Source: Deltaproteobacteria bacterium (GTDB lineage Bacteria; Desulfobacterota; DSM-4660; Desulfatiglandales; Desulfatiglandaceae). Taken from it: a stretch of DNA of 64,000 bases. The DNA lies in NCBI GenBank assembly GCA_021737785.1, contig JAIPDI010000011.1, forward strand, positions 1-64,000. Reading direction: 5' to 3'. Below the pieces are notes generated by a model. It made no database searches. It had not been told where the DNA came from and saw nothing but the letters and a program-made list of their open reading frames with translations. This document shows positions 43,379 through 51,465 of this stretch, in pieces. Position numbers and translations under genes: made by a program. Numbering within the stretch: position 1 is the first letter of the stretch; every line of letters begins with the position of its first letter.

Positions 43379-44015
43379 ATCTGAGTTCTACCACCTATTC
43401 CTTACCGGAATCCAACAGCACCTATCGCCCACGCTTCGCTCCCCAGTTTTTCAAACATGAGCCGCTCTACCGAATTGCCCTATGTTGGGCCAGGTTTCCG
43501 TTTATTTTTTTACCAACCTTATCCTTCAATGGTCACGGAATCGTATCCATGGCAGCGAATGCTGGTTCATGAAGGGGGATCAGGATATCCCCTGCCGTCT
43601 TCACGTCATACGGATTTTACCCACTGGCAGCAATTGCATCCATGGGGATACTGATCTGGCCATCAACATCTCTTGCGCCAGTTCCCTTGACTACAATCGC
43701 ACCTTCACATTGAATCACATGCCCCACCCAGGGGATCCCTGTCTCCACGTCCAGTCCCTTGCCGGACCCAGGCCCCCATTTGAGGCCCGTGACGTCCGGG
43801 TATTCTCCCGCAAAACAAGATGGTCACATTTTATTTGACACCCAAGGCCGCTTCACCCATACTCCAAACAGAAAAAGCAAGGTTATATCCGGTGATCACC
43901 CTGCGAGGTGTTACATCCAACACGCCGAGGAGCGAAGACCGAGGCGTATTTCTTCATGTGCCGCAGGGAGGAGCAAAGCGATTAGGATATCCGGAGAATG
44001 AACGAGGAGGGCCGT
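43379..44015. other. Gene-poor stretch with possible decayed coding sequence and structured leader
   Basis: No intact gene is supported. On the minus strand 43823-43620 reads 68 codons of protein-like sequence (PSCFAGEYPDVTGLK...DAIAASG), closed by TAA and followed in frame by 26 more sense codons before the next stop. This may be a decayed gene, but open stretches of this length are common by chance here. Nearer the next gene, 43885-43990 contains nested complementary arms: ATATCC/GGATAT, CCCTGCG/CGCAGGG and the hairpin GTGTT-ACATCC-AACAC. Confidence 0.35.
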
Positions 44016-45014
44016 GTGATCAAGAAAGGCGCCGTGGCGCTGACTCTTTTTGCCGTCATGCTTGTCGGCATGGTCGGGTGCAGCCGAAACGAGGATCCGA
44101 AGCCCCTTGAGAAACTCACCCTTGCCGTGACGCCCTGGCCCGCTTCCGCGCCTCTGTATGTTGCGCACGAGAGGGGCTATTTCAGGGACGAAGGGCTCGA
44201 TGTAACCCTCCATCCCTATGTATCGGGGCACCTTGGGCTGGATGCGGTGCTCGCGGGGAAGGCGGAACTCGCCACGGCCGGTGAAACACCGATCGCCCTG
44301 GCCGCCATGGAAGGAAAGCCGCTTTCGGTGGCCGCCACGGTTTGCGAAATCGATCGGGCGATCCTGATCATCGCGAGGAAGGACAGGGGCATTTCCAAAC
44401 CCTGTGATCTCAGGGGGAGGAGAGTCGGCGTGGTGGAGGGCACGACCGCACATTTTTTCCTCCACATCTACCTGATTACCTCCCATGTGGATCCGAATGA
44501 CATCATAATGGTTCCCATTGCGGCAGACAGGGTGGTCGATGTCTTGCTGAACGGGGAGGTTGATGCGGTCAGCACCTGGACGCCTCACACCATCATGCTC
44601 CTGGACAGGCTTGGGAGCAATGCCCTCGTGCTTCACGACGCGAACATTTACACCATGACATGGAATCTTGTGGCTGCCCAGGATTTCGTCAAGACACATC
44701 CCGGGCGGATCGTGAAGTTCCTTCGGGCCGTGGTGACGGCAAATGAATTTATCGCAGAAAAACCGGAAGAGGCCATGGCCGTGGTCGCCGCGGCCATCGG
44801 TGCAGAAAGCCCCCTGTTCGAGAAGGAATGGAAGGACTTCAAGTTTGTCACCGTGCTGGAACAGAGTCTGATCGTGAATCTGGAAGATCAGGCGCGTTGG
44901 TTCAGGAAGAGAAGTTCCAGCAAGCGCACGACGCCTCCCGACTTCACATATTTCATCCATACCGACGGCCTGAAGGCAGTGCGACCTGAAGCGGTCGGGA
45001 TCACCGGCACATAG
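44016..45014 (+). CDS. NMT1/SsuA-type substrate-binding lipoprotein, no transporter partner
   Basis: A periplasmic solute-binding protein. The GTG at 44016 with GAGGAGG 5 bases upstream is the likely start (332 residues); ATG 43998 adds six residues but has poor spacing. The lipobox VGMVGCS predicts a lipid-anchored protein. The fold signature runs from LTLAVTPWPASAPLYVAHERGYF through GTTAHFFLHIYL, as in binding proteins for sulfonates, nitrate or thiamine precursors. No ABC permease or ATPase is adjacent. Instead, a sensor kinase gene starts 9 bp downstream, so the protein probably delivers a bound ligand signal to that sensor. The ligand cannot be deduced. Confidence 0.9.
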   Translation: MIKKGAVALTLFAVMLVGMVGCSRNEDPKPLEKLTLAVTPWPASAPLYVAHERGYFRDEGLDVTLHPYVSGHLGLDAVLAGKAELATAGETPIALAAMEGKPLSVAATVCEIDRAILIIARKDRGISKPCDLRGRRVGVVEGTTAHFFLHIYLITSHVDPNDIIMVPIAADRVVDVLLNGEVDAVSTWTPHTIMLLDRLGSNALVLHDANIYTMTWNLVAAQDFVKTHPGRIVKFLRAVVTANEFIAEKPEEAMAVVAAAIGAESPLFEKEWKDFKFVTVLEQSLIVNLEDQARWFRKRSSSKRTTPPDFTYFIHTDGLKAVRPEAVGITGT

Positions 45015-45023
45015 GGGACGGTA

Positions 45024-48000
45024 ATGAATATCGGCTCCAAATTGAAGCTTGCGGCCCTGGTTCCCTTGCTCGTGTCCCTGGTCACCGGCCTTGCGCTCCT
45101 CTTCTCCTACAGGGCAATAGATCGGGCCTGGGATGAGGGCCAAAGGACCAAGCAACTCATGAACAGCATGAATGAGTTGAACAGCCTGGCCAGGTACTAC
45201 ATGCTCTATCCCGAGAATCGACCCAAGCGGCAATTCCTCAGCGAATACGATTCCATGACCGAAATCATCGCCTCCCTCCAATTTCGGGACAAGGTCCAGC
45301 AGGGGCTCCTGCAAGGCATTCGGGACAATAGCGAATCCGTGAGGAAGGCATTCCTCAGGCTGGTTGCCGTCTACGAACGACCCGCCCCGGCCGAGCGCTA
45401 TGCCCTGTCCAGGGAAGCGGAGGAGCGGTTGATCGGGCGGATACTGACAAGGGCGCGTGACGTGCTGTCCGATGCACTGCGGCTCGAAGCCCTGATCGAT
45501 GGCGAGATAGCGAATACCCAGCGAAGGGTGAGTTGGCTTGTTATTTTCATTCTCGTGACCACAGGCGTTCCCCTCACCGTTGTTCTGATCCGGACCATGA
45601 AAGGCATTACTGCGTCGCTCGCGACCGTGAGACAGGGAACCGAGGCCGTCGGCGCCGGTCATCTCGATCACAGGATCGGCATGGCGGATAGGGATGAGAT
45701 CGGGGAACTCTCCTGCGCCTTTGACCGCATGACGGACCGCTTGAGGAATACTACGGTTTCCAGAGACAGACTCCGCAAAGAGGTGGAAGAGCGAAAGGGG
45801 GCCGAAGAAGATGCGCGCCGGCAGGGAGAGTGGCTGCGGGTCACCCTCAGCAGCATCGGCGACGCGGTAATCGCCACGGACATCCAGGGCCGGATCAGCT
45901 TCCTCAATCCCGGCGCCGTAAGCCTGACGGGCTGGCAACTCGAAGAGGCCAAGGGCCGGTCGATCCAGGGCATCTTCCGGATCATCAACGAAAAGACCCG
46001 CAGCCCGGCCGAGGACATTGTGAACCGCGTGTTGCGCGAGGGGAACGTCGTCAACCTGGTCAATCATACCGCCCTTATTCACCGTGATGGCCGCGAAATC
46101 CCCATCGAGGACAGCGCGGCCCCGATTCGGGATGCCGAAGGAAAAACAGCAGGGGTGGTAATCGTCTTTCATGATGTCACGGAGAAGCGCCGGGCACAGG
46201 GAGAGATCCTGGAGGCGGCGGAGAAGTTCCGCATCGTGGCGGATTTCACTCAGGACTGGGAGCACTGGCGCAGCCCGGAAAATCGCTTTCTCTATGTCTC
46301 ACCCTCGTGCGAGCGTATTTCCGGCTACGCGCCGGAGGAGTTCATCCAGGATCCGGATCTCTATTCCAGGATCATTCATCCGGACGACCGGGAACGCGTT
46401 GAGGCGCATCTGCATGGAGAGCAGTTCCGTGGGGAAACACGTGAACTGGAATTCCGTATCCTGCACCGTGACGGCAGGATACGTTGGATCGGTCATGTTT
46501 GTCAGGCCGTCCTGGACCCACAAGGCGCTTTTCAGGGGCGTCGGGGTTCCGAGCGTGACATCACCGACAGAAAACAGGCTGAGGCGGCCACCCAAGAAGC
46601 CAGGAAGTCTCTGGAAAGGGAGAAGCAGATTCTTCAGTCGGTCATGGACGGGGCAGAAAACATCCACCTCACCTACCTGGACCGGGACTTTAACTTTGTG
46701 CGCGTGAACCGGGTGTACGCCCGGACGTGTGGGTATACGGCCGAGGACCTGATCGGGAAGAACCACTTCACCCTTTTCCCCCATGAAGAGAACGAGGCGA
46801 TCTTCGTCCGCGTGCGGGAGACGGGCGTACCGGCGATCTTCCATGATAAACCCTTTGTCTTTCCGGACCAGCCAGAGAGGGGAACTACCTACTGGGACTG
46901 GAGTCTTCTGCCGGTGAAGGACCCTTTCGGTGACGTACAAGGCTTTGTGTTTTCTCTTGTTGAAACGACCGAGCGGAGGCGGGCCGAGGACGCACTCAAA
47001 GAGAGCGAGGCCCGGCTCCGCCTTCAGATGGAACGGATGCCTATCGGGTGTATCCTCTATGACGAGAAGTTCCACTTTGCCCAAATGAACCCCGCTGCGG
47101 AGCGGATTTTCGGTTTCCGTGGAGGAGAACTCATCGGACGCCATGCGCAGGTCATCGTGCCGGCCGATGCCCAGCCCCACGTGGAGGGAATTCTCCATCG
47201 CATCGCCGAAGGCGACATGACCGCTCACAGTGTGAACGAGAACCTCACCCGGGACGGCAGGATCATTCTCTGCGATTGGCTGAATACGCCCCTGAGGGAT
47301 GCAGGAGGCCGCTTTACCGGGGTTCTCTCCATGGTCCAGGACGTCACTGAGAAAAAGCAGGCAGAGGAAGACCTGCGGCAGCGAACCCTGGAACTTCAGC
47401 AACTGAACAATACGCTGGAGCGGCGGGTGGAGGATCGGACCGCAGAACTTGCCATCATCAACAAGGACCTGGAAGAAGAAATTGCCGAGCGGAATCGGGC
47501 CGAAGAGGCGGCGAGAACGGAACGCCGTCGGCTCTACGAGGTCCTGGAGACGCTGCCGGCCTACGTGGTGCTCCTGACCCCGGATTATCAGGTACCCTTT
47601 GCCAATCGTTTCTTCAGGGAACGTTTCGGAGAGTCCAATGGACTGCGGTGTTTCGAGTTCCTGTTCGGCCGAAAGGAGGCGTGCGAGAATTGTGAGACAT
47701 ATTCTGCCATGAAGACCCATGCCCCCCATCATTGGGAGTGGGCCGGACCGGACGGTCGCATTTACGAGGTATCCGACTTTCCCTTCACCGACACGGACGG
47801 TTCCACCCTCATCCTGGAGATGGGCATCGATATCACGGAGCGCAAGCGGGCAGAGGAGCGGTTGAAGGCTGCCTCCTTGTATGCCAGAAGTCTCATTGAA
47901 GTGAGTCTCGATCCATTGGTCACCATCAGCAGGGATGGAAAGATCCTGGATGTGAACAGGGCCACGGAACTTGTTACCGGAGTTGTCCGTGAACGGCTCA

Positions 48001-48947
48001 TTGGCACGGATTTTTGCCACTATTTTGCGGAGCCCGAGAAGGCAAGGGAGGGATATGAACAGGTATTTAGGGCGGGACTTGTAAGAGACTTTCCCCTTGC
48101 CATCCGCCATATCTCAGGCAGCCTCACGGAGGTCCTGTACAATGCCTCGACATACAGAAACGAAACCGGCGAGGTGGAGGGGGTCTTCGCCGCCGCCAGG
48201 GACATCACCGAATTGAAACGGGCGGAGAAAAAACTGAGAAGCTATATGGCCATGCTGGAGCTGAGTAACCGGGAAATGGAGGACTTTGTCCATGTGGCAT
48301 CCCACGATCTGCAGGAGCCGTTGCGCAAGCTCCGGACCTTTTCCGACCTGCTGCTCGGCCAGCATCACGACTCCCTGAGCGACAAGGCCCGTGATTACCT
48401 GAAGAGGATCAACCTGTCGGCGGAGAGGATGCATACCCTGGTCATGAGCCTCCTGAGGTATTCCCGTATCACCTCCGACTCGAACCCTTTTACAGTGTTC
48501 AATCTTGCGGACCCGGTGCGGGAGGCGGTGGCGGATCTGGGTGTGCCCTGTGAGGAAACGGAGGGCCGCGTGGAGGTGGGTGAACTGCCCGATATTGAGG
48601 CGGACAGGGTCCAGATGCGTCAGCTCTTCCAGAACCTGATCAGTAACGCCCTGAAGTACCAGGGGGAAGGGAAGCCCGTGGTCCGGGTCTACGGCAGCCC
48701 CCCGGATTCAGGTTTGTTCTGGGACATCCAAGTGGAAGATAATGGGATCGGCTTTGACGAGGCTCACTTAGACAAGATTTTCAAGCCCTTTCAGCGGCTC
48801 CACGGGAGGAGTTCTCCCTATGAGGGGACAGGCATGGGGCTGGCCATCTGCCGGAAGATCGTGGAACGCCATGGCGGGGTCATCACAGCCAGGAGCGTGC
48901 CGGGGAAAGGATCGACATTTATTGTCAGTCTGCCGAAGCGGCAGTAA
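45024..48947 (+). CDS. Multi-PAS sensor histidine kinase
   Basis: A 1307-residue membrane sensor. TM1 is about residues 9-32, a helical periplasmic domain about 33-167, TM2 about 169-192, and HAMP about 193-245. Six PAS domains follow at about 266-385, 390-515, 530-650, 661-780, 830-940 and 945-1065. A coiled coil lies at about 785-835. The phospho-acceptor is His1094 in VASHDLQEPLRK, and the HATPase spans about 1190-1307 (DNGIGFDEAH, GTGMGLAIC). The fifth PAS has a CxxC (KEACENCE), possibly a metal or redox site. The periplasmic helices could contact the binding protein encoded just upstream, like TorS with TorT. No receiver domain is fused. Confidence 0.95.
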   Translation: MNIGSKLKLAALVPLLVSLVTGLALLFSYRAIDRAWDEGQRTKQLMNSMNELNSLARYYMLYPENRPKRQFLSEYDSMTEIIASLQFRDKVQQGLLQGIRDNSESVRKAFLRLVAVYERPAPAERYALSREAEERLIGRILTRARDVLSDALRLEALIDGEIANTQRRVSWLVIFILVTTGVPLTVVLIRTMKGITASLATVRQGTEAVGAGHLDHRIGMADRDEIGELSCAFDRMTDRLRNTTVSRDRLRKEVEERKGAEEDARRQGEWLRVTLSSIGDAVIATDIQGRISFLNPGAVSLTGWQLEEAKGRSIQGIFRIINEKTRSPAEDIVNRVLREGNVVNLVNHTALIHRDGREIPIEDSAAPIRDAEGKTAGVVIVFHDVTEKRRAQGEILEAAEKFRIVADFTQDWEHWRSPENRFLYVSPSCERISGYAPEEFIQDPDLYSRIIHPDDRERVEAHLHGEQFRGETRELEFRILHRDGRIRWIGHVCQAVLDPQGAFQGRRGSERDITDRKQAEAATQEARKSLEREKQILQSVMDGAENIHLTYLDRDFNFVRVNRVYARTCGYTAEDLIGKNHFTLFPHEENEAIFVRVRETGVPAIFHDKPFVFPDQPERGTTYWDWSLLPVKDPFGDVQGFVFSLVETTERRRAEDALKESEARLRLQMERMPIGCILYDEKFHFAQMNPAAERIFGFRGGELIGRHAQVIVPADAQPHVEGILHRIAEGDMTAHSVNENLTRDGRIILCDWLNTPLRDAGGRFTGVLSMVQDVTEKKQAEEDLRQRTLELQQLNNTLERRVEDRTAELAIINKDLEEEIAERNRAEEAARTERRRLYEVLETLPAYVVLLTPDYQVPFANRFFRERFGESNGLRCFEFLFGRKEACENCETYSAMKTHAPHHWEWAGPDGRIYEVSDFPFTDTDGSTLILEMGIDITERKRAEERLKAASLYARSLIEVSLDPLVTISRDGKILDVNRATELVTGVVRERLIGTDFCHYFAEPEKAREGYEQVFRAGLVRDFPLAIRHISGSLTEVLYNASTYRNETGEVEGVFAAARDITELKRAEKKLRSYMAMLELSNREMEDFVHVASHDLQEPLRKLRTFSDLLLGQHHDSLSDKARDYLKRINLSAERMHTLVMSLLRYSRITSDSNPFTVFNLADPVREAVADLGVPCEETEGRVEVGELPDIEADRVQMRQLFQNLISNALKYQGEGKPVVRVYGSPPDSGLFWDIQVEDNGIGFDEAHLDKIFKPFQRLHGRSSPYEGTGMGLAICRKIVERHGGVITARSVPGKGSTFIVSLPKRQ

Positions 48948-49088
48948 GGTGTTCGGATACCTTGACCTTTCGGCTCCGGGCCTTGCGCTTCGAACTCTCA
49001 GGCTTCAGCGGTTACCTGTTGTTGGTCCTGTATCTCCTCTAAATCCCGTCAAGTTTTTCCTGTGGTGAATATGTTAGGGAGGTAGGCC

Positions 49089-49496
49089 TTGAATACCGAT
49101 AGGGAGCCACTCGTCCTGATGGCCGACGATGACGACGATGATTGTACGCTGGCCAAGGATGCCTTCAGGAAATCGGGGGCGCGCGGCGTCATCCACTGTC
49201 TCGAGAACGGGATGGAACTCATGGACTATCTCTCCCGCTTCGACTCGGTTCCTGATCTGATCCTGCTTGATCTCAACATGCCCATCAAGGACGGTCGCCT
49301 CGTCCTGAAGGAGATCAAGTCCACACCTGCGTTTCAGCACATTCCGGTTGTGGTGTTCACCACCTCCCGGGAAACCAAAGATATCGCCTACAGCAGTGAA
49401 ATGGGGGCCCAGTCATTCATTACGAAACCGAATACCTTCGGAGAGTGGGTCAGCATCATGAAGTCCTTAGCAGATCAATGGCTCGCGGCCGGCTAG
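49089..49496 (+). CDS. Receiver-only response regulator (Rcp1-like)
   Basis: A 135-residue stand-alone receiver. The acidic pocket is ADDDDDD near residue 12-18, the phospho-acceptor is Asp61 in LLDLNMPIKDG, the Thr is in VFTTS, and Lys is in TKPN. Rcp1-like receivers commonly pair with kinases having the HDLQEPLRK H-box, as here. The start is TTG with AGGGAGGT 5 bases upstream. It lies 141 bp after the kinase. There is no output domain, so it would act by protein contact or phosphorelay. Confidence 0.94.
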   Translation: MNTDREPLVLMADDDDDDCTLAKDAFRKSGARGVIHCLENGMELMDYLSRFDSVPDLILLDLNMPIKDGRLVLKEIKSTPAFQHIPVVVFTTSRETKDIAYSSEMGAQSFITKPNTFGEWVSIMKSLADQWLAAG

Positions 49497-49738
49497 CAGG
49501 GTGCTGAAAAAAGGCGCTGGATGCGGGTCAAAACAATCTGTCTATAAGTATCCCTTGTCTCAGGGTTGGTATTTCCTATTTCATAATTGAGATAGTTTCT
49601 ACGCCAGTTGCCCCTTGACGGCGCTCCACTTCTCATATCCAGGCTGAAACAGTTTCAGTATGGACCCCAACACGTCCCTCAACACGAGAAATTGGGTATC
49701 GGCGTGACCTCATTGGGCCGGCGCAATCGGCATACGTT

Positions 49739-49806
49739 GGGCAACCCCGCTACCCAAACCCGCAAGGGCCGGCGGTTTTGCGTCCCACTCTTTCGAGAGG
49801 TTTGCC
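49739..49806 (-). ncRNA. Cyclic di-GMP-I (GEMM-I) riboswitch aptamer
   Basis: The minus strand starts GGCAAACCTCTCGAAAGAGT and continues GGGACGCAAAACC, GCCGGCCC, then GGGTAGCGGGGTTGCC. This matches the GEMM-I consensus: closing helix GGCAA/TTGCC; GAAA-tetraloop hairpin CTCTCGAAAGAG; the GGGACGCAAA ligand strand; GCCGGCC receptor; and GGTAGCGGGGTT. Ligand is by family knowledge. Downstream (lower coordinates) no annotated minus-strand gene exists before the convergent response regulator, so the target is unclear. Confidence 0.93.
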
Positions 49807-49843
49807 TTTTTCACAACTATTATGCAGGCATCAAACCGAAAAA

Positions 49844-49873
49844 AATATAGAGATTTTTTTTGAGTTCTGTCAA
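49844..49873 (-). promoter_or_regulatory. Promoter of the GEMM-I riboswitch RNA
   Basis: On the minus strand TTGACA (49873-49868), 18-bp spacer, TATATT (49849-49844). Transcription would begin near 49836, about 30 nt before the aptamer. The other parts of the 49497-50256 gap show no gene. Confidence 0.7.
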
Positions 49874-50256: not shown

Positions 50257-51465
50257 ATGGCTCAAACAGATAAAATAGATCCTTTAGGGTATGTCAGATC
50301 GCTCATCATCCCCATGATCATGGCGGCGGCCGTTCTCATGGCGGCATGCCAGAACAAAAAGGAGGCCCCGCCGCCGTCCGTGCCCGTGGTCATGGTGGTG
50401 GAGATTGTCCGAAAGGATGTGCCTGTTGTTTTTGAATATATTGCCCAAACCCAGAGTTCCCATCTCGTCAACATTCAGGCGCGGGTAAGCGGGTTTCTCG
50501 ACAAGCGGATGTACACCGAGGGCGCGGTGGTGAAGGAGGGCCAGATACTTTTTCAGATGGATGCCAAACCGTTTAAAGTCCAGCTGGACCAGGCAAAGGC
50601 CGCCCTTGCCAAACAGGAGGCCGCGTTCGAAACCGCCCGCTTGAATCTTGCCCGCACCAAACCCCTTACAGAACAAAACGCCCTTTCCCAGAAGGACCTT
50701 GACGATGCAACAGGCCGTTACCAGGCCACCGCTGCCGCCGTGGCCCAGGCCAGGGCCCAGGTGGAAGCGGCAAGGCTTAACCTTTCCTACACGACCATTA
50801 CATCCCCGGTGAGCGGCATCACCAGTTCGGCTCGTCAGACCGACGGTACGTATATCAATCCCCAGAACAGCCTCCTTACGACCGTTGCGGTGCTCTCCCC
50901 CATGTGGGTGAATTTCAGTCTGTCTGAGAACGAATTGCAGAAATATCTGGACCAGATTGCCGAGGGTCGGTTGCGTCCACTGAAAAGCGATGAGTATGAG
51001 ATCGAGATCCTCCTTGTGGACGGATCAATCTATCCCCATACAGGTCGGATGACTTTTGCCGAACCCTCCTATAATCCCCAGACCGGGACTTTTCTCATCC
51101 GGGCGGATGTTGATAATCCGGACGGGATCCTGCATCCGAACCAGTTTGTCCGGGCGCGCCTGAAAGGCGCAATCCGGCCCCAGGCAATCCTGGTGCCCCA
51201 GCGTGCGGTGCAACAAGGGTCAAAGGGCCACTTTGTCCTGGTGGTGGGGAAGGATTCCAAGATCGAACAGCGACCCGTCACGGTTGGAGAATGGCATGGA
51301 GACGACTGGTTCATATTCGAAGGTCTGAAAGACGGCGAGCAGGTGGTGGTTGACGGCGGTCTGATGCTCAGGCCCGGAATGATTGTCACCACAAAGCCGT
51401 ATGATGCCGGCCATGCATCCGGAGCCGAGGGTCCCACCTCGTCCGAAACAGGCACAACCAAGTGA
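50257..51465 (+). CDS. RND efflux periplasmic adaptor lipoprotein (AcrA/MexA family)
   Basis: Membrane-fusion subunit linking the inner-membrane pump to the outer-membrane channel. The 402-residue protein has a lipobox (VLMAACQNKK), a lipoyl/hairpin region (IQARVSGFLDKRMYTEGAVVKEGQ, then a coiled-coil with repeated AKAAL/ARLNL), and the beta-barrel and membrane-proximal domains (LVPQRAVQQGSKG). It is the first gene of the operon with the permease (21 bp apart) and outer-membrane factor. No regulator gene is adjacent. Confidence 0.95.
   Translation: MAQTDKIDPLGYVRSLIIPMIMAAAVLMAACQNKKEAPPPSVPVVMVVEIVRKDVPVVFEYIAQTQSSHLVNIQARVSGFLDKRMYTEGAVVKEGQILFQMDAKPFKVQLDQAKAALAKQEAAFETARLNLARTKPLTEQNALSQKDLDDATGRYQATAAAVAQARAQVEAARLNLSYTTITSPVSGITSSARQTDGTYINPQNSLLTTVAVLSPMWVNFSLSENELQKYLDQIAEGRLRPLKSDEYEIEILLVDGSIYPHTGRMTFAEPSYNPQTGTFLIRADVDNPDGILHPNQFVRARLKGAIRPQAILVPQRAVQQGSKGHFVLVVGKDSKIEQRPVTVGEWHGDDWFIFEGLKDGEQVVVDGGLMLRPGMIVTTKPYDAGHASGAEGPTSSETGTTK

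What the first reader, a model, noticed from the sequence alone, without database searches (positions are those of the whole stretch)
49602..49873. Orphan c-di-GMP-I riboswitch with its own promoter and no recognisable target gene
The minus strand has a consensus promoter, a ~30-nt lead-in and a near-perfect GEMM-I aptamer. Transcription then runs toward the 3' end of a convergent response-regulator gene, with only very short open frames in between. Such RNAs normally control a gene directly downstream. Here the output could be a small peptide, antisense RNA over the regulator/kinase 3' region, or a relic of a lost gene. No GGDEF, EAL or PilZ gene is in the window.
Basis: partly seen in the sequence, partly recalled or inferred. 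Interest (0 to 1): 0.75.

Follow-up and report, generated by a model that had tools for sequence, protein, structure and literature searches.

The report
Orphaned c-di-GMP riboswitch, no target gene
A genuine RNA sensor for the bacterial signal molecule c-di-GMP, with a good promoter, sits in a gap between genes with no gene or terminator after it; it is most likely a switch that has lost its gene, although a free-standing or antisense role is not excluded.

Summary
A GEMM-I (c-di-GMP-I) aptamer lies at window 49815-49736 on the minus strand (66.8 bits RF03167, E 1.3e-13; 68.4 bits RF01051), with an 11/12 sigma-70-type promoter at 49873-49844. It is the only GEMM-I found in the 5.33-Mb genome, which carries 8 GGDEF matches. 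The pocket letters are of the c-di-GMP type, but its score is mid-ranked among the hits in relatives, not "near-perfect". Downstream on the same strand there is no terminator, no recognisable gene, and only frames without relatives; RNA polymerase would run into the 3' end of a convergent response-regulator gene 239 nt away. I compared 80 GEMM-I loci from relatives. About 50 carry a hairpin plus T-run after the aptamer, and nearly all have a same-strand gene close by; no other clear orphan was seen. The nearest aptamer (88% identical, another family of the order) sits 64 nt before flgE with a terminator. Orthologues of the response regulator (2) and efflux adaptor have no GEMM-I beside them, so the aptamer belongs to neither flank. 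Best reading: a riboswitch orphaned by rearrangement, sensor and promoter still intact. Rivals: antisense-acting riboswitch, small-peptide leader, merRNA-like RNA. All have precedents.

The parts
49844..49873 (-). sigma-70-type promoter, TTGACA-18-TATATT
   Evidence: 11/12 matches; only 4 sites of this quality in 128 kb of strand
49816..49837 (-). inferred 5' leader (start site inferred about 7 nt after the -10 box, not mapped)
   Evidence: sequence, inference
49736..49815 (-). c-di-GMP-I (GEMM-I) aptamer; G20, A47 and C92 equivalents present, GAAA tetraloop, paired P3
49500..49735 (-). 3' stretch without terminator, recognisable gene or relatives; fold no better than shuffles (z -0.53)
49602..49709 (-). 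36-codon open frame (best start TTG about 49670, 23 aa) with codon usage like window genes but no relatives; possible peptide or gene remnant, not significant
49089..49496 (+). convergent single-domain response regulator; its 3' end would be overlapped by read-through from the aptamer promoter
45024..48947 (+). multi-PAS histidine kinase upstream of the response regulator
50257..51465 (+). divergent RND efflux adaptor gene on the other side of the aptamer

Best explanation
It is a c-di-GMP-I riboswitch that has lost its gene and its expression platform, probably through a rearrangement that brought a sensor/kinase/regulator cassette and an RND efflux operon next to each other. Shown: promoter-like sequence and intact aptamer, no terminator, no recognisable downstream gene, no counterpart beside orthologues of either flank. 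Inferred: the promoter still makes an RNA that folds and can bind c-di-GMP, but ligand binding no longer switches a target; transcription fades into the antisense of the response-regulator gene. The orphaning would be fairly recent, since aptamer and promoter have not decayed.
For: Aptamer real. No terminator downstream, while about 50 of 80 loci, nearly all of them related ones, have a hairpin plus T-run within 160 nt. Same-strand genes follow practically all related aptamers, including small genes that a longest-ORF rule misses. The closest aptamer (88%) has a terminator and then flgE starting 64 nt after it. The SBP-kinase-regulator cassette in G034 and the efflux adaptor in G005, G034 and G017 have no GEMM-I match beside them, and 11 loci holding the efflux adaptor have no Rfam match. 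The stretch downstream of the aptamer has no match in 46 family genomes beyond its own.
Against: Promoter (11/12) and aptamer look intact, which a useless relic would not keep for long. The locus is species-specific in the data held, so loss cannot be seen directly. No remnant of a lost gene was recognised; similarity of a downstream hairpin to the G055 terminator is weak (p about 0.013, other loci nearly as similar).
Confidence: 0.45

Rival explanations
1. Antisense-acting riboswitch: c-di-GMP controls how far transcription from the minus-strand promoter runs into the response-regulator/kinase operon, lowering its expression by antisense RNA or polymerase collision.
For: Convergent arrangement with 239 nt between aptamer and the regulator's stop codon, within the 500-nt rule of PMC9943018, where c-di-GMP riboswitches show the strongest antisense tendency (152 antisense against 2,554 sense) and signal-transduction histidine kinases are among the targets. 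No terminator separates aptamer from gene.
Against: No switchable terminator was found, so ligand control of read-through has no visible means. The two orthologous response regulators found (G034 83%, G005 61%) have no GEMM-I beside them: G034's hits lie elsewhere and G005 has none.
Confidence: 0.2
2. The riboswitch controls a short unannotated peptide, at most 36 codons (49709-49602, -).
For: The frame's codon score (0.31) is close to window genes (median 0.36) and exceeded by 5.6% of antisense frames; GAGG lies 6 nt before a TTG start (sequence). Related aptamers do precede small genes of roughly 72-120 codons.
Against: No relative in 395 genomes, plasmids, Pfam or NCBIfam. The codon signal is not significant after choosing among several frames. 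TTG start, no strong ribosome site.
Confidence: 0.18
3. A free-standing c-di-GMP-binding noncoding RNA (sponge or store), as proposed for merRNA of Bdellovibrio bacteriovorus.
For: Promoter-like sequence of its own, intact aptamer, no open reading frame with relatives downstream; the genome has 8 GGDEF matches. merRNA is a 445-nt c-di-GMP riboswitch RNA without a conserved downstream ORF (PMC3627812).
Against: No terminator defines a 3' end; the 3' stretch folds no better than shuffles; nothing indicates massive expression.
Confidence: 0.15

Closest known systems
Canonical c-di-GMP-I (GEMM-I, RF01051) cis-riboswitches, e.g. the flgE riboswitch at G055:C262
   Same: Aptamer fold and sequence; 88% identity to the G055 aptamer
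   Different: No expression platform found and no downstream gene
merRNA of Bdellovibrio bacteriovorus (PMC3627812)
   Same: c-di-GMP riboswitch in an RNA with no conserved ORF downstream
   Different: Expression unknown here; no RNA end defined; merRNA is massively expressed in attack phase
Antisense-acting riboswitches (PMC9943018)
   Same: Riboswitch convergent with the 3' end of a signalling gene, within 500 nt
   Different: No ligand-controlled terminator seen; arrangement not conserved with orthologues of the target
cGAMP riboswitches of Geobacter (GEMM-Ib)
   Same: Same fold
   Different: Window has G, not A, at the position equivalent to Vc2 G20 (position assignment from memory of the solved structures)

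Membership tests
c-di-GMP-I aptamer (RF01051/RF03167) | Covariance-model score above gathering | tested here: met
   66.8 bits RF03167, 68.4 bits RF01051
c-di-GMP-I aptamer (RF01051/RF03167) | Pocket residues of the c-di-GMP type (G20, A47, C92 of Vc2) | tested here: met
   Sequence AAGGCAAACC...GGGACGCAAAACC...GGGGUUGCC; G and A at the first two positions; numbering from memory, so the test is by alignment only
c-di-GMP-I aptamer (RF01051/RF03167) | Binds c-di-GMP | not testable with these tools
   needs in-line probing or ITC
cis-acting riboswitch | Expression platform after the aptamer (intrinsic terminator tested; a ribosome-site switch has no gene to act on) | tested here: not met
   no hairpin plus T-run on the minus strand
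cis-acting riboswitch | Controlled gene directly downstream on the same strand | tested here: not met
   no recognisable minus-strand gene in about 7 kb up to 42693; a short peptide cannot be excluded
antisense-acting riboswitch | Convergent with and within 500 nt of a gene's 3' end | tested here: met
   239 nt to the regulator's stop codon
antisense-acting riboswitch | Ligand-dependent antisense transcription | not testable with these tools
   needs RNA-seq or a reporter
antisense-acting riboswitch | Arrangement kept beside orthologues of the target (supporting, not strictly defining) | tested here: not met
   two orthologues, no GEMM-I beside them
merRNA-like free-standing c-di-GMP RNA | No conserved ORF downstream of the riboswitch | tested here: met
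merRNA-like free-standing c-di-GMP RNA | Abundant discrete RNA | not testable with these tools
   no expression data; no terminator found

The most novel reading that the evidence does not exclude
A working, gene-free c-di-GMP-sensing RNA in a desulfobacterial species that acts in trans (ligand store) or on the opposite strand (c-di-GMP-gated antisense control of a two-component operon).
Probability: 0.3. Interest if true: 0.6.

Novelty: new member of a known kind. Interest (0 to 1): 0.3.

Why it matters
If it is a relic, it is a tidy example of how riboswitches are stranded by rearrangement. If it still works, it adds to the very few c-di-GMP riboswitches without a cis gene (merRNA, predicted antisense cases), and being the only GEMM-I found in this genome makes it a simple test case.

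Tried and rejected
Rejected: mis-called aptamer (score and E-value); GGC variant (window has A where the GGC consensus has G in GACGC-G-AA, and RF01051 scores higher); cGAMP type (G at position 20). Repeat or mobile element carrying the aptamer: one copy only in the genome, none in plasmids or phages, and no exact match of a 23-nt aptamer core in viral contigs. The 36-codon frame as the end of a known protein: no relatives. A structured 3' RNA: fold z -0.53 alone, -1.40 with aptamer. Decayed copy of the G055 terminator: p about 0.013 and other loci score nearly as well, not claimed. One paper was not held and one look-up failed on a too short term.

Full report
What is there. On the minus strand a sigma-70-type promoter (TTGACA-18-TATATT, 49873-49844) is followed after 28 nt by a complete c-di-GMP-I aptamer (49815-49736). 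Sites of 11 or more out of 12 occur four times on the 128 kb of strand in the window, so the pairing of promoter and aptamer is unlikely to be chance. The aptamer carries the letters expected for c-di-GMP (AAGGCAAACC with G at the Vc2 G20 position, A after GGGACGC, C in GUUGCC; position names from memory), a GAAA tetraloop, and intact P3 pairs. Against the closest aptamer it differs mainly in the variable P3 loop. By eye, P1 is four pairs here and five there.

What is missing. Between the aptamer and the convergent response-regulator gene (stop at 49496) there are 239 nt with no minus-strand terminator, no Rfam family, no unusual fold and no relatives in 46 genomes of the family. The minus strand holds no recognisable gene down to 42693; the long minus-strand frames at 43911-46265 and 46299-48110 lie antisense to the substrate-binding protein and the kinase, and I take them as spurious.

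Comparison. RF01051 was searched in 61 genomes of the family and order: 43 have it, with up to 7 copies; the window's genome has one. For 80 of these hits I read up to 2.5 kb downstream where the contig allowed. About 50 of the 80 loci scored (one of which is the window, with none) have a hairpin of -8 kcal/mol or better followed by a T-run within 160 nt (some are likely chance). Nearly all have a same-strand gene close by. Several loci that looked gene-free by a longest-ORF rule were read by eye and had small genes, most with ribosome sites (L139, L152, L159, L165, L174, L188, L198). I did not verify every downstream gene by homology, and one locus (L193) ends 132 nt after the aptamer. The best aptamer match, G055:C262 (88%), has a terminator 23 nt after the aptamer and flgE at 64 nt.

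Does the aptamer belong to a flank? The substrate-binding protein-kinase-regulator cassette recurs in G034 (72%, 56-73% and 84% identity by part) and there has no GEMM-I. A second response-regulator orthologue (G005, 61%) lies in a genome without any GEMM-I. The efflux operon recurs widely, and 11 loci with it have no Rfam match. So the aptamer sits at a junction specific to this species in the data held. The two same-genus genomes lack close copies of the substrate-binding protein and the efflux adaptor, so the event itself cannot be dated.

Interpretation. The most economical account is a riboswitch stranded by rearrangement. The intact promoter and aptamer argue that this was recent or that something is still selected. 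Literature gives precedents for function without a cis gene: merRNA (PMC3627812) and predicted antisense-acting riboswitches, for which c-di-GMP is the most enriched class (PMC9943018). A 36-codon frame has coding-like codon usage, which is only a hint. I give relic 0.45, antisense 0.2, peptide 0.18, free-standing RNA 0.15.

Taxonomy. The efflux adaptor's best named match is a Desulfobacterales MAG (77%), and the related genome G005 contains a contig of the same length as LT984854.1, uncultured Desulfobacterium TRIP AH-1. The window is therefore probably from a Desulfobacterota bacterium (inference); closer placement was not made.

Noticed in passing
L165, L174, L159, L188 (just after the aptamer): GEMM-I aptamers in family f2 of the order precede a small gene (about 87-120 codons) whose product starts M(I/F/M)ID and ends (L/I)D(V/L)(V/I/M)V. 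Two members tested have no Pfam match; possibly one family of c-di-GMP-controlled small proteins.
   Followed up: partly
G017:C20:1027-1309, G034:C1:3338331-3338649, G013:C91:9027-9715: Tandem GEMM-I aptamers a few hundred bases apart in several relatives.
   Followed up: no
L138-L217, aptamer positions equivalent to Vc2 20-22: About a quarter of relatives' aptamers read GCC instead of GGC at these positions (AAGCCAAACC, AGGCCAAACC), a distinct subgroup that often precedes genes with a signal-peptide-like start.
   Followed up: no
window 43998-49496: Cassette of substrate-binding lipoprotein, 1307-aa multi-PAS histidine kinase and single-domain response regulator, conserved in G034: looks like a periplasmic-ligand sensing system.
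   Followed up: partly
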